Positions 47,643 to 57,491 of a stretch of 64,000 nt of DNA are shown piece by piece (positions within the stretch are counted from its first letter, which is position 1; each line of letters opens with the position of its first letter). The notes under the pieces were generated by a model. It was not told the origin of the DNA. It made no database searches and saw only the letters and a program-made list of their open reading frames with translations. Source of the stretch: Xanthobacteraceae bacterium (GTDB lineage: Bacteria > Pseudomonadota > Alphaproteobacteria > Rhizobiales > Xanthobacteraceae); the NCBI GenBank assembly GCA_019635585.1, contig JAHBZE010000001.1, forward strand, positions 992,001 to 1,056,000, in the 5' to 3' direction. The translations under genes were made by a program, and so were the position numbers.

Positions 47643-48407
47643 TTAAGCGAAGGCCCGCAGCGCGTCGTAGAGCAGCTTCGCCGCCGCCGCCAGCAGGATC
47701 ACGTAGCACCAGAAAAAGAGCCGCGCCTGATCGAGCCGGTCGTGGATGTATTTGCCGAGCCAGACACCGAACGGCACGACCGGCGCGAGCACGAGCGCCT
47801 GAATCAGAGTCGCAGGTTTTGCAAACGCGAGCGCGGAATACGGGACCAGTTTCACGACATTGCCGAGCGCGAACAACGCGACCGCGGTGCCTGCGTAAGC
47901 CGTCTTGTTCAATCCGCGATACAAAAGATAAGCACTCATCGGCGGACCGCCGGCGTGCGCGACGAAAGTCGTGAAACCGGTTGCCGTTCCCGCGACGAGC
48001 GCTAGCGGCGGCGAAACCGGCCGCTCTTTATGTTCGGATTTTCGTCCGCGCAGAAACCAGTCGAGCGCGAAGATCACAGTGATTACGCCGATGCCGGCGG
48101 CGACCACGCGCGGATCGACATAGACGAAGAAGACATAGCCCAACGCAATGCCGAAAAGCAGCGCGGGCGCAAGCCACACCAGATCGGGCTTCGACCAACT
48201 GCTCCTGCCGAAACTGCCGAAGGCGAAGAAATCCATGAAAGCGACGAGCGGCGCAACCACAATCGCGGCGTCGAGCGGTGGCAGCACCAGCGACAAAAGC
48301 GGTACGCCGAGAATCGCGAGTCCGCCGCCGAAGGCGCCTTTACCTACCGAGACGATGAAGATCGTGGTCAGGCCGACGAGATAAAAAGCCGGATCAGTCG
48401 GAATCAA
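47643..48407 (-). CDS. TauE/SafE-family sulfite/anion exporter
   Basis: A 254-residue protein with about eight membrane helices. GKGAFGGGLAILGVPLLSLVLPPLDAAIVVAPLVAFMD and GFTTFVAHAGGPPMSAYLLYRGLNKTAYAGT are TauE/SafE signatures. Members export sulfite, sulfoacetate or related anions released in organosulfonate breakdown, although many are uncharacterised. Its ATG overlaps the aldo/keto reductase stop as ATGA, making it the last gene of a five-gene run that begins with a TRAP transporter. This suggests that the imported substrate yields an anion needing export. Confidence 0.87.
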   Translation of the reverse strand: MIPTDPAFYLVGLTTIFIVSVGKGAFGGGLAILGVPLLSLVLPPLDAAIVVAPLVAFMDFFAFGSFGRSSWSKPDLVWLAPALLFGIALGYVFFVYVDPRVVAAGIGVITVIFALDWFLRGRKSEHKERPVSPPLALVAGTATGFTTFVAHAGGPPMSAYLLYRGLNKTAYAGTAVALFALGNVVKLVPYSALAFAKPATLIQALVLAPVVPFGVWLGKYIHDRLDQARLFFWCYVILLAAAAKLLYDALRAFA

Positions 48408-49390
48408 GCGTGGCCCGCCGGTTTACGCGTCCGATACGGCTCCTCGAGATATTTTCTAGTCTCGGCGTCGAATTTAATATCGAGCGCTTTCAGCGCGTCC
48501 TTCAGATGATGCGGCTTCGAGGCGCCGACGATGGACGAAGTCACGGCCGGATTGGCGAGCGTCCAGGCGATCGCGACCGCCGCGCGCGAAACACCGAGCT
48601 TCTCGGCGGTCACGCGCACGCGCTCGGCGATCTCGTGATCGGTGTCGGTCGCGCCGATACCGAGCGTTCTTGCAAAATCGTCGGTATTGCCGCGTAACGT
48701 CTTCTCGCCTTGCGACGGCATCGAACCGGCGAGAAAGCCGCGCGCGATCGGCGACCACGGCGTCACCGCAATCTTCTCCTCCTTGCAGAACGGCAGCATC
48801 TCGCGCTCTTCCTCGCGATAGATGAGGTTGTAGTAATTCTGCATGGATACGAAGCGGGCGAGGCCACGCTCCTTTTGCATGGTCAGCATCTTCGCGAACT
48901 GCCACGACCACATCGACGAGGCGCCGAGATAGAGCGCCTTGCCGGCTTTCACGACATCGGAAAGCGCTTCCAGCGTTTCTTCGATTTCGGTCTCGTAGTC
49001 GAAGCGATGGATGATGTAGAGATCGACATAATCCATCTTCAGCCGCTTCAGCGAAGCGTCGATGCCTTCCATGATGTGCTTGCGCGAGAGGCCGCGCAAA
49101 TTCAGCGCCTTGCCCATCGGATTGAACACCTTGGTGGCGACCACGACTTCTTCGCGCCGCGCGGCGTGTTCCTTGACGGCACGGCCGAGGATCTCTTCGC
49201 TCACGCCCTGCGAATAGACGTCCGCGGTGTCATAGAAATTGATACCGGCGTCGAAGGCAGCCTTGAAGAACGGCTTGGAGTCCTCCTCGGTCAGCACCCA
49301 TTCGCGCCAGGACTTCGAGCCGTAGGTCATACAGCCGAGACACAGGCGCGAAACTTTCATCCCGGTCGAGCCGAAGCGAACGTATTCCAT
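48404..49390 (-). CDS. Aldo/keto reductase (YajO-like)
   Basis: A 328-residue NADPH-dependent reductase. The catalytic tetrad is D54 and Y59 (NFYDTADVYSQG), K87 (VVATKVFNP) and H128 (LYIIHRFDY). VRFGSTGMKVSRLCLGCMTYG is the family N-terminus; VTPWSPIARGFLAGSM and SSIVGASKPHHLKDALKALDI bind the cofactor. It reduces aldehydes or ketones; the substrate is unknown. It starts 16 bases after the TRAP large permease stop and overlaps the TauE gene, so it likely acts on the transported compound or its product. Confidence 0.93.
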   Translation of the reverse strand: MEYVRFGSTGMKVSRLCLGCMTYGSKSWREWVLTEEDSKPFFKAAFDAGINFYDTADVYSQGVSEEILGRAVKEHAARREEVVVATKVFNPMGKALNLRGLSRKHIMEGIDASLKRLKMDYVDLYIIHRFDYETEIEETLEALSDVVKAGKALYLGASSMWSWQFAKMLTMQKERGLARFVSMQNYYNLIYREEEREMLPFCKEEKIAVTPWSPIARGFLAGSMPSQGEKTLRGNTDDFARTLGIGATDTDHEIAERVRVTAEKLGVSRAAVAIAWTLANPAVTSSIVGASKPHHLKDALKALDIKFDAETRKYLEEPYRTRKPAGHA

Positions 49391-49406
49391 GCGTAAAATT
49401 CCTGCG

Positions 49407-56000: not shown

Positions 56001-56652
56001 CGTGATGGTGGACGACGAAATTCCGATGAACGCTGGATGTCTCCGCCCCATCAATATCGTGGTGCCCGAACGCTCGATGCTCTCGCCGCAGTATCCGGCC
56101 GCAGTCGTCGCCGGCAACGTCGAGACGAGCCAGGCCGTCACGAATTGCCTGTTCGGCGCGCTCGGCGCGATGGCCTGCGCGCAGGGCACGATGAACAACC
56201 TCACTTACGGCAACGACAACTATCAATATTACGAGACGATCTGCTCGGGCTCGCCCGCGGGACCGGGCTTCAATGGTACCGATGCCGTGCATACGCACAT
56301 GACGAATACGCGCCTTACAGATCCGGAGATTCTGGAATTCCGATTCCCCGTGGTTCTGGAAGATTTCCACATCCGTAAAAATTCAGGCGGCCGCGGTAAA
56401 TGGCACGCGGGCGACGGGATCTACCGCCGCGTGCGTTTCCGCGAAAAGATGGACTGCGCGATTCTTTCCGGTCACCGCCGCGTTGCGCCCTTCGGGCTTG
56501 CGGGCGGCGAGAGCGGTCACGTCGGCGAGAACCGCGTGCGGCGCTTGAACGGCAGGGAAGAAAAACTCAAAGGCTGCGACCAGACCGTGCTCGAAGCCGG
56601 TGAAGCGGTGATTATTGTGACGCCGACGGCGGGAGGATATGGTCGCGCCTGA
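53044..56652 (+). CDS. Fused hydantoinase A/B (5-oxoprolinase-like) enzyme
   Basis: A 1202-residue ATP-dependent amidohydrolase joining HyuA and HyuB. The N-terminal part has [19 protein letters not shown] and [50 protein letters not shown], the phosphate-binding sites of the ASKHA-like HyuA fold. From about residue 695 ([44 protein letters not shown]) runs the HyuB domain, with [15 protein letters not shown] and [13 protein letters not shown]. This is the layout of 5-oxoprolinase; hydantoinases and acetone or acetophenone carboxylases usually have separate subunits, so the substrate is open. ATG 53044 has GGAGGAG seven bases upstream. Confidence 0.92.
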
Positions 56653-56675
56653 CGGCGCTTTTTCGAGGGCGGCAC

Positions 56676-57491
56676 ATGGCTGTCGCAATCACTCCCCAAG
56701 TCGTTCGGCGGATCGAAACCGCCGAGCATGAAGCCTGGCGCGAGATCGATCGCGCGGCGCCTGCCGATATTCGCACGGCACTCGGTATCGAATGCACTTC
56801 AATCGGCGACGGCGCGGTCTTCGCCGTTTCCAAGATCGATCATATCCAGTTCAACCGGCTCGCCGGTCTCGGCATCACACGCGAGATCATGCCGAAAGAA
56901 CTCGACGAAGGCATCAACGTGTTCGACCGGCTCGGTCTGAAGAACTGGATCGTTCACGTTCCGCCGCAGAGCCATAACCTCGCGGCGCTTTGCGCGGCCT
57001 GCGGCCTCGTTCCTCATTCGCGCAGCTGGGCGAAATTCGTGCGCGATGCCGCGCCGCCAGCGAGGATCGAAACCGATCTCAACATTCGCGAAATCGGCGC
57101 GGAACAAGGCGAGATATTCGGCGCGACAGCGGCCAAAGGCTTCGGCATGCCGCCTGTGCTCGGCAAATGGCTCGGCGCCATTCCCGGCCGCCAGAACTGG
57201 CACTGCTTTCTTGCGTTCGACGGCGACGCGCCGGCTGCAGCCGGCGCCCTATACGTTCACAATCGCACCGGCTGGATCGGAATTGGCGCGACGCTCGAAA
57301 GCTATCGCGGACGCAAAGCGCAGCAGGCGATTCTGGCAGCACGGATCGCAAAGGGAATCGAACGCGGCTGCGACCTCTTCACGACGGAAACCGGCATTCC
57401 GCATGTAGGCGAAGCGGGACCGTCGTTCAAGAACATCCAGCGCGCGGGATTGCTGATCGCTTACGAGCGGCCGAATTTGAAGCGGCCCTAG
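56676..57491 (+). CDS. GNAT-family acetyltransferase
   Basis: A 271-residue protein with a C-terminal GNAT domain. IGIGATLESYRGRKAQQAILAARIAKGIERGCDLFTTETG holds the acetyl-CoA loop (here RGRKAQ in the R/QxxGxA position). The N-terminal 130 residues are less clear, possibly a second degenerate GNAT lobe (NWIVHVPPQSHNLAALCAACGLVPHSRSWAKFVRD also reads like one). It starts 24 bases after the hydantoinase stop and is probably cotranscribed. It might modify the amino acid released there; this is inference. Its stop overlaps the convergent extensin gene by four bases. Confidence 0.82.
   Translation: MAVAITPQVVRRIETAEHEAWREIDRAAPADIRTALGIECTSIGDGAVFAVSKIDHIQFNRLAGLGITREIMPKELDEGINVFDRLGLKNWIVHVPPQSHNLAALCAACGLVPHSRSWAKFVRDAAPPARIETDLNIREIGAEQGEIFGATAAKGFGMPPVLGKWLGAIPGRQNWHCFLAFDGDAPAAAGALYVHNRTGWIGIGATLESYRGRKAQQAILAARIAKGIERGCDLFTTETGIPHVGEAGPSFKNIQRAGLLIAYERPNLKRP

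What the first reader, a model, noticed from the sequence alone, without database searches (positions are those of the whole stretch)
47643..57491. Candidate undescribed catabolic block: TRAP uptake, aldo/keto reductase, TauE export, MarR control, fused hydantoinase and GNAT
Five minus-strand genes (dctP, dctQ, dctM, aldo/keto reductase, tauE-like) are packed with gaps or overlaps of 48 bases or less. A MarR-like gene and a divergent 1202-residue HyuA/HyuB fusion with a GNAT gene adjoin. TRAP systems import carboxylates or sulfonates, TauE proteins export sulfite or related anions, and HyuAB-type enzymes open cyclic amides with ATP. A sulfonated or acidic lactam/hydantoin-like compound taken up, ring-opened, reduced, and its anion exported would explain the set. 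The substrate is inference; the linkage is seen.
Basis: partly seen in the sequence, partly recalled or inferred. Interest (0 to 1): 0.65.

Follow-up and report, generated by a model that had tools for sequence, protein, structure and literature searches.

The report
Pyroglutamate uptake and ring-opening locus
This stretch most likely lets the bacterium import pyroglutamate, the closed-ring form of glutamate, and reopen it with ATP to make glutamate, under a MarR-type switch; the reductase and sulfite-exporter-like genes beside it look like local neighbours rather than parts of the pathway.

Summary
The substrate can be named, and it is probably not a sulfonate. The three nearest solved structures of DctP are all pyroglutamate (5-oxoproline) receptors: DctP6, DctP7 and 6wgm, at 51, 46 and 44% identity. 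The divergent 1202-residue HyuA-HyuB fusion is therefore best read as an ATP-dependent 5-oxoprolinase. Independent support: among 108 DctP loci (window included), 54 have this fusion near dctP, 39 have PxpA of the unrelated 5-oxoprolinase PxpABC instead (37 in one clade of Halomonas and allies, two in the window's order), 15 have neither and none has both. Of 61 genomes (own plus 60 relatives), 59 carry one enzyme or the other. The MarR gene co-occurs with a palindrome, GTCAATAANTTATTGAC, upstream of the enzyme gene: held-out fusion loci 21 of 27 with MarR, 0 of 16 without. AKR and TauE adjoin the TRAP genes only in the window's genus. The GNAT-like gene occurs in 3 of 61 genomes. Pyroglutamate TRAP receptors near a eukaryotic-type 5-oxoprolinase are already in print for Bordetella. 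I did not find in print the exchange of two unrelated 5-oxoprolinases behind one TRAP/MarR module, or its operator. Activity is inferred, not measured.

The parts
51326..52300 (-). dctP: pyroglutamate (5-oxoproline) binding protein of a TRAP transporter (ligand inferred)
   Evidence: Pfam DctP 3e-36. Nearest structures 2pfz 2e-100, 2pfy 3e-91, 6wgm 2e-78; model pLDDT 92.7 matches the same three at Z 39-41, all titled as pyroglutamate binding or specific. Conserved R166.
50723..51277 (-). dctQ: small TRAP membrane subunit
   Evidence: Pfam DctQ 5.6e-19; a dctQ relative near dctP in 105 of 107 loci.
49407..50717 (-). dctM: large TRAP membrane subunit
   Evidence: Pfam DctM 3e-83; TIGR00786 368 bits over cut-off 268; near dctP in 102 of 107 loci.
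52392..52937 (-). MarR/HTH_27-type regulator, start set here at GTG 52937 (181 aa)
   Evidence: HTH_27 1.1e-16. A relative is found in 66 of 92 enzyme-linked loci, and beside the fusion where TRAP genes are not near (L149, L155, L161). Start and ribosome-binding site.
52998..53014 (.). candidate operator, a diverged copy of GTCAATAANTTATTGAC (4 mismatches), in the 106-base gap between the regulator and enzyme genes
   Evidence: Best match in the whole 64-kb window; the motif tracks presence of the regulator gene.
53044..56652 (+). fused HyuA-HyuB protein, 1202 aa: ATP-dependent 5-oxoprolinase (inferred)
   Evidence: Pfam Hydant_A_N, Hydantoinase_A, Hydant_A_C, Hydantoinase_B; CapB metal ligands align with D, H, D, H; fusion near dctP in 54 of 108 loci, PxpA instead in 39.
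48404..49390 (-). aldo/keto reductase; probably co-transcribed, role in the pathway not supported
   Evidence: Pfam 3e-72. Close copies (67% or more) in 9 of 198 family genomes; beside the TRAP genes only in the window's genus.
47643..48407 (-). TauE/SafE-family membrane protein; possibly a resident of the groEL neighbourhood
   Evidence: Pfam TauE 6.5e-27; beside groEL in G098 and G077, which have no close AKR (L175, L177).
56676..57491 (+). GNAT/FemX-like protein, lineage-specific, downstream of the fusion
   Evidence: 3 of 61 genomes; sub-threshold Pfam; low-confidence model matches tandem GNAT folds.

Best explanation
This is a pyroglutamate (5-oxo-L-proline) scavenging locus. DctP captures pyroglutamate in the periplasm, and DctQM imports it down an ion gradient. 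The cytoplasmic HyuA-HyuB fusion hydrolyses it with ATP to L-glutamate, as a 5-oxoprolinase. The MarR-type protein controls the divergent regulator-dctPQM and enzyme transcripts through a palindromic site in the gap between them, presumably relieved by pyroglutamate or glutamate. The AKR, TauE and GNAT genes are lineage-specific neighbours, possibly transcribed with these genes but not steps of the pathway. Shown here: gene content, nearest structures, conserved linkage, exchange with PxpABC, regulator-operator co-occurrence. Inferred: ligand, catalysis, ion coupling, direction of regulation.
For: The three nearest solved structures are all pyroglutamate receptors by their PDB titles, well above the other rows listed (Z 39-41 against at most 35.5; 44-51% identity against 15-24%). 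35 residues are identical in at least 97% of fusion-linked and of Pxp-linked DctPs and in both DctP6 and DctP7, including R166. On the quick DctP tree the 12 Q-M-P-order cassettes group with DctP6 (96*), and a 92-row set that holds the window also holds DctP7 (97*). Enzyme near dctP: fusion 54, PxpA 39, both 0, neither 15 of 108; 3 changes between the two on the quick and the careful tree. PxpA/B/C confirmed by family models in L083, PxpA in L069. Genome level: fusion clade in 39 of 61, PxpA family in 30, both in 10, neither in 2; Fisher p 7e-7, one per genus 1.6e-5. The window's genome has no PxpA. Operator with regulator: held-out fusion-linked loci 21 of 27 against 0 of 16. A published passage places DctP6 and DctP7 genes near a eukaryotic-type 5-oxoprolinase gene, with KD 0.3 uM for DctP7 (PMC13274462, passage).
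Against: No ligand binding or enzyme activity was measured. A HyuA-HyuB fusion is not by itself diagnostic: the nearest solved fusion, 7hk5, is named N-methylhydantoinase, and I had no characterised fused 5-oxoprolinase to align with. One genome per family, the enzyme complementarity is not significant (p 0.21), and PF03746 alone stands for PxpABC in that count. In 17 of 39 fusion-bearing genomes the fusion was not found near a close dctP (two of these lie on contigs of 3.3 and 5.5 kb), so the enzyme also has a life apart from this transporter. Ten genomes carry both enzymes. The operator signal is weak in Pxp-linked loci (11 of 29 against 1 of 10, p 0.13), and the phylogeny-aware test is only moderate (median p 0.039, range 0.002-0.22). 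The window's own site has 4 mismatches.
Confidence: 0.9

Rival explanations
1. One reading: a sulfonated or other acidic lactam or hydantoin is imported, opened, reduced by the AKR, and a sulfur anion is exported by the TauE protein, all as one pathway.
For: Tight same-strand packing of AKR and TauE behind dctM. AKR beside the TRAP genes in all 6 genus members in which it was found, also where the TRAP cassette differs (L124). In G088 the AKR-TauE pair lies about 5.6 kb from a fusion gene (L173).
Against: Near dctP, AKR was found in 4 and TauE in 4 of 107 other loci. AKR-TauE occurs in G022, which has neither a fusion-clade enzyme nor a close dctP. TauE is beside groEL in G098 and G077, which have no close AKR. 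G001 has no close TauE; G006 has only an 86-residue piece and no close AKR. The isethionate receptor IseP is far off (20% identity).
Confidence: 0.04
2. Another ATP-dependent lactamase or hydantoinase: the fusion acts on a hydantoin, caprolactam-like lactam or similar ring, and DctP has drifted to that ligand.
For: The family includes such enzymes; the nearest solved fusion is called N-methylhydantoinase; the best NCBIfam match is a caprolactamase subunit.
Against: Caprolactamase models are far below cut-off (361.8 and 153.7 bits of 1000) and the vicinal cysteines of CapB are absent, which speaks against caprolactamase but not against hydantoinases. The three nearest DctP structures bind pyroglutamate. 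The same slot is filled by PxpABC elsewhere.
Confidence: 0.06
3. The fusion is a housekeeping 5-oxoproline repair enzyme that clears spontaneously formed pyroglutamate, and the TRAP genes are next to it by history, importing something else.
For: The fusion was found without a close dctP nearby in 17 of 39 genomes, and 59 of 61 genomes have one 5-oxoprolinase or the other.
Against: DctP groups with pyroglutamate receptors, and the transporter pairs with either of two unrelated 5-oxoprolinases, which expects a shared substrate.
Confidence: 0.05

Closest known systems
Bordetella pertussis DctP6 (2pfz) and DctP7 (2pfy), the pyroglutamic-acid-binding DctP subfamily (Rucktooa 2007; paper not held, known here through passages of PMC13274462, PMC3454389, PMC5812351 and the PDB titles)
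   Same: Nearest sequence and fold (51% and 46%, Z 41 and 40); receptor genes reported near a eukaryotic-type 5-oxoprolinase gene.
   Different: Here open TRAP membrane genes, a MarR gene and a divergent fused enzyme are packed together, with AKR, TauE and GNAT genes adjoining. PMC5812351 (passage) says the membrane components of the B. pertussis system seem mutated.
pxpTABC/PxpR of Corynebacterium glutamicum (PMC13274462, abstract and passages)
   Same: Dedicated pyroglutamate uptake, ATP-dependent 5-oxoprolinase and a divergent local regulator.
   Different: All three parts are of other families: APC-superfamily transporter, PxpABC and a GntR regulator there; TRAP, HyuAB fusion and MarR type here.
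PxpABC (LamB/YcsF, CT_C_D, CT_A_B) 5-oxoprolinase
   Same: Proposed same reaction; PxpA lies near the same kind of dctPQM genes in 39 of 108 loci, on the opposite strand in 38, with a MarR relative in 29.
   Different: Unrelated proteins; no PxpA in the window's genome.
Caprolactamase CapAB and the hydantoinase/oxoprolinase family (PMC8453981, passages)
   Same: Same Hydantoinase_A and Hydantoinase_B domains, ATP motifs and metal ligands.
   Different: Two chains in CapAB, one here; CapB vicinal cysteines absent here; model cut-offs not met.

Membership tests
Pyroglutamate-binding DctP subfamily | Nearest relatives by sequence and fold are receptors solved with or specific for pyroglutamate | tested here: met
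   ranks 1-3 are 2pfz, 2pfy and 6wgm by both sequence and fold; tree.
Pyroglutamate-binding DctP subfamily | Conserved arginine that holds the ligand carboxylate (SiaP R147 equivalent) | tested here: met
   R166, identical in at least 97% of linked DctPs and in the three structures; role from PMC4646407 passages. That R166 is the equivalent position is my reading of motif and alignment, not a structural superposition of the residue.
Pyroglutamate-binding DctP subfamily | Binds pyroglutamate | not testable with these tools
   No assay possible; contact residues of 2pfz/2pfy were not available (paper not held).
DctP-type TRAP transporter | DctP, DctQ and DctM together | tested here: met
   TIGR00786 over cut-off.
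Fused (eukaryotic-type) ATP-dependent 5-oxoprolinase | HyuA-like and HyuB-like parts in one chain of about 1200-1300 residues | tested here: met
   open frames of about 1200-1340 residues in most relatives listed with 46% identity or more. The length range is recalled.
Fused (eukaryotic-type) ATP-dependent 5-oxoprolinase | ATP-site motifs and metal ligands of the wider family | tested here: met
   [22 protein letters not shown] in the sequence against the motifs in PMC8453981; CapB D41, H99, D102, H124 align with D, H, D, H. Shared with hydantoinases, so not diagnostic.
Fused (eukaryotic-type) ATP-dependent 5-oxoprolinase | Closer to characterised 5-oxoprolinases (OPLAH, OXP1) than to hydantoinases | not tested
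   No such protein was among the PDB hits, and none was fetched; likeness is recalled only.
Fused (eukaryotic-type) ATP-dependent 5-oxoprolinase | Converts 5-oxoproline to glutamate with ATP | not testable with these tools
   Inferred from exchange with PxpABC and from the receptor.
Caprolactamase CapAB | NCBIfam equivalog cut-offs; vicinal cysteines of CapB | tested here: not met
   361.8 and 153.7 bits of 1000; the residues aligned with C410 and C411 are M and T.
PxpABC 5-oxoprolinase | LamB/YcsF protein encoded in the genome | tested here: not met
   0 matches of PF03746 in G000.
Sulfonate uptake and degradation | Receptor most like sulfonate receptors | tested here: inconclusive
   Isethionate receptor 8t9t ranks ninth, 20% identity; a receptor for a new sulfonate cannot be excluded by rank alone.

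The most novel reading that the evidence does not exclude
One transporter-plus-regulator module (dctPQM, MarR type, shared operator) has switched between two unrelated ATP-dependent 5-oxoprolinases (3 changes on the DctP tree), and two TRAP cassettes of different gene order have replaced each other in place within one genus. The locus would then be a swap-in chassis for pyroglutamate scavenging whose only fixed logic is the substrate. In the boldest form, to which I give only about 0.03, AKR and TauE extend it in this genus to a sulfur analogue of pyroglutamate (2-oxothiazolidine-4-carboxylate, a 5-oxoprolinase substrate as I recall), with TauE exporting the sulfur product.
Probability: 0.3. 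Interest if true: 0.6.

Novelty: new variant of a known kind. Interest (0 to 1): 0.45.

Why it matters
It turns a vague 'catabolic block' into a named, testable pathway. It gives a likely assignment for a widespread TRAP receptor group and for fused HyuAB proteins of this clade. The exchange of two unrelated enzymes behind one transporter and regulator is a natural functional test that points to the substrate without biochemistry. The predicted MarR-type operator gives a simple handle for testing how these bacteria sense pyroglutamate, a compound formed spontaneously wherever glutamate and glutamine occur.

Tried and rejected
Sulfonate or hydantoin substrate: considered and lowered because of receptor kinship and the PxpABC exchange. 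AKR-TauE as pathway steps: tested in 198 family genomes and by neighbourhoods (the TauE neighbourhoods of G129 and G136 were not looked at); not supported, though G088 has a fusion gene about 5.6 kb from the pair, and in G062 TauE lies beside a distant TRAP set (DctM 30%), which keep a small chance open. GNAT role: the model is poor (pLDDT 68, 3 sequences) and the fold matches are broad (tandem GNAT, FemX, aminoacyl-tRNA-dependent ligases), so no role was assigned. What other transporters accompany the fusion when the TRAP genes are absent: translations around it in 12 of 17 such loci were read by eye only, showed no evident common transporter, and were not searched further. A first palindrome scan gave one motif shared by 8 loci of two groups (six Nitratireductor, two NORP MAGs); it was then tested on loci left out. 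A remark in PMC8453981 about a lysine (Lys40) absent in oxoprolinases could not be tested, because the number did not fit the CapA chain as aligned. A structure of the whole fusion was not predicted: at 1202 residues it is over the limit. The original Bordetella paper and the PxpABC discovery paper are not held. Print searches for the TRAP/5-oxoprolinase/MarR combination: (listings; passages read in six papers with matches, and none found in a seventh). None showed the enzyme exchange or the operator, but most subscription papers are outside that library.
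Full report
What is there. Pfam supports all but the last. GC is 0.60-0.63 through the block, close to its surroundings, and no tRNA was found in the window, so nothing here marks it as an island. The MarR frame reads to 53129, but a GTG at 52937 behind GGGGAGG gives a 181-residue protein, close in size to Halomonas relatives (177 and 186), and leaves a 106-base gap to the fusion.

The receptor. The dctP product has three near structures: 2pfz (2e-100), 2pfy (3e-91) and 6wgm (2e-78), then a drop to 2e-21. 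A model built from 39 sequences (pLDDT 92.7) ranks the same three first, at Z 40.9, 40.4 and 39.1 with 51, 46 and 44% identity; the next is Z 35.5 at 19%. Their PDB titles name DctP6 and DctP7 'binding pyroglutamic acid' and a marine receptor 'specific for pyroglutamate'. PMC3454389 (passage) states that 2PFZ is DctP6 and 2PFY is DctP7, both with pyroglutamic acid bound. PMC13274462 (passages) gives KD 0.3 uM for DctP7 and places both receptor genes near a gene for a eukaryotic-type 5-oxoprolinase. Thirty-five residues are shared by at least 97% of the fusion-linked and of the Pxp-linked receptors and by both DctP6 and DctP7, among them R166, which I read as the carboxylate-holding arginine.

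Conserved neighbourhood. I compared 110 loci (L031-L140: 80 named contigs and 30 stretches); three were repeats of others (L111, L112, L115) and were dropped, leaving 107, and the window makes 108. 'Near' means midpoints within 9 kb; the loci were picked by likeness of DctP, so they are not a random draw. The fusion lies near dctP in 54, on the opposite strand in all, and more than 5 kb away only in L134. In 39 others PxpA (LamB/YcsF) lies there instead, on the opposite strand in 38; PxpB and PxpC were found too in 38. No locus has both. Fifteen have neither; six of these hold under 3 kb upstream of dctP and nine hold more, so at least some dctP genes truly stand without either enzyme. Family models confirm PxpA, PxpB and PxpC in L083, and PxpA in L069. 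Of the 39 Pxp loci, 37 are in one clade of Halomonas and allies with Nitrincola; two (L118, L126) belong to genomes of the window's order. On the DctP tree 3 changes between the two enzymes are needed, in the quick and in the careful tree (L140 was left out of the careful one). Many Halomonas rows are close kin, so 39 is not 39 events.

Whole genomes. In 61 genomes (own plus 60 relatives) the fusion clade (46% identity or more; other listed matches are 38% or lower) is in 39 and the PxpA family in 30; 10 have both, 29 only the fusion, 20 only PxpA, 2 neither (G043, G052). Fisher p is 7e-7 over all genomes, 1.6e-5 with one per genus and 0.21 with one per family, so the pattern is strong within the window's family and not shown beyond it. 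The window's genome has no PxpA. In 22 of the 39 fusion genomes a close dctP lies near; in the other 17 none was found near (G004 and G038 on contigs of 3.3 and 5.5 kb). That suggests a second, transporter-free life of the enzyme, for example clearing spontaneously formed pyroglutamate.

The enzyme. The fusion has the four Pfam parts in order. Against the caprolactamase study (PMC8453981, passages) the ATP motifs are present, the four CapB metal ligands align with D, H, D, H, and the vicinal cysteines of CapB are missing. That paper says these cysteines are missing in 5-oxoprolinases and in hydantoinases alike, so this only argues against a caprolactamase, as do model scores far below cut-off. 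Against the 5-oxoprolinase reading, the nearest solved fusion is named N-methylhydantoinase, and I could not compare with a characterised fused 5-oxoprolinase. The function therefore rests mainly on the receptor and on the exchange with PxpABC.

Regulation. A palindrome scan of 54 intergenic stretches found GTCAATAANTTATTGAC in 8 of them, six from Nitratireductor and two from NORP MAGs. Over 92 enzyme-linked loci (window not counted) a site with at most 4 mismatches lies upstream of the enzyme in 43, against 33 hits in 1.62 Mb of the rest of the same loci. It tracks the MarR gene: 42 of 66 loci with the gene and 1 of 26 without. Leaving out the 8 source loci and two more of the same genus, it is 32 of 56 against 1 of 26; for fusion-linked loci 21 of 27 against 0 of 16 (p 3.6e-7); for Pxp-linked loci 11 of 29 against 1 of 10 (p 0.13). 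In 17 further fusion loci where no TRAP genes were seen nearby, sites with at most 4 mismatches occur in 3 of 4 with the MarR gene and 0 of 13 without; one of the three, L162, is a broken contig of the window's genus. With kinship taken into account, source loci included, the sign test has median p 0.039, range 0.002-0.22. The window's own copy (52998-53014) is diverged (4 mismatches) but is the best match in the 64 kb. In G048, G042 and G049 the MarR gene sits beside the fusion although the TRAP genes do not.

AKR, TauE and GNAT. Near dctP, AKR was found in 4 and TauE in 4 of the 107 other loci. Close AKR copies (67% or more) are in 9 of 198 family genomes: six of the genus, all beside the TRAP genes, and three elsewhere. 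G022 and G088 (one genus) have AKR followed by TauE behind two MFS-like genes and an amidohydrolase-like gene (named by eye from the translations), with no TRAP genes seen; G088 also has a fusion gene about 5.6 kb away, while G022 has no fusion-clade gene. Close TauE copies are in 12 of 198. In G098 and G077 TauE lies beside groEL, as it does here, and neither genome has a close AKR. In G062 it lies beside a distant TRAP set (DctM 30%), a result that does not fit a pure groEL story. G001 lacks a close TauE; G006 keeps an 86-residue piece and lacks a close AKR. I read AKR-TauE as a separate pair that became attached to this operon in one genus. The GNAT-like gene is in 3 of 61 genomes, just behind the fusion in each.

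A transporter swap. In G003, G005 and G006 the fusion is 91-93% and the MarR gene 79-95% identical to the window's, yet the TRAP genes are only 33-57% identical and in the order Q-M-P. With nine others these cassettes are one side of a branch on the careful tree (100/93*), and on the quick tree they group with DctP6 (96*). So one pyroglutamate TRAP cassette has apparently replaced another in place, between neighbours that stayed.

Comparison and verdict. It works like the pxpTABC/PxpR system of Corynebacterium (PMC13274462) built from other parts, and it belongs with the TRAP pyroglutamate receptors first recognised in Bordetella. Print searches did not show the exchange of the two enzymes or the operator; that is a statement about this library only. 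I put 0.9 on the pyroglutamate reading, low odds on any role for AKR and TauE in it, and rate it a new variant of a known kind.

Noticed in passing
L122, L124, L132 against window 49407-52300: Apparent in-place replacement of one TRAP cassette (P-Q-M order, DctP7 side) by another (Q-M-P order, DctP6 group): MarR 79-95% and fusion 91-93% identical on one side, groEL 94-95% on the other in L122 and L124 (L132 ends at dctP).
   Followed up: partly
L111 5143-6711 and L124 8146-10583: TauE-family genes in tandem: two copies in G007 and three in G005, where one was seen in the window.
   Followed up: no
L122 7013-7264: An 86-residue TauE piece beside dctP in G006, where no close AKR was found: perhaps a decayed copy of the AKR-TauE end of the operon.
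   Followed up: no
L144 4347-9732 and L173 4234-9561: AKR-TauE preceded by two MFS-like genes and an amidohydrolase-like gene in another genus, a possible separate catabolic set; named by eye.
   Followed up: partly
L176 7055-10745: In G062 a TauE relative (64%) lies beside a distant TRAP set (DctM 30%, DctP 24%), so TauE near a TRAP transporter is not unique to the window's genus.
   Followed up: no
window 56676-57491: GNAT/FemX-like protein with few relatives: 3 of 61 genomes, behind the fusion gene in each.
   Followed up: partly
L134 1-2418 and 7621-10476: In G033 the fusion and the DctP6-type TRAP genes are about 7 kb apart with a second DctM/DctP-like set between them.
   Followed up: no
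L159 6734-7705, L149 7241-8176 and L173 2341-3240: LysR-like genes beside the fusion in some genomes, suggesting other regulators where the fusion stands apart from the TRAP genes; read by eye from translations.
   Followed up: no
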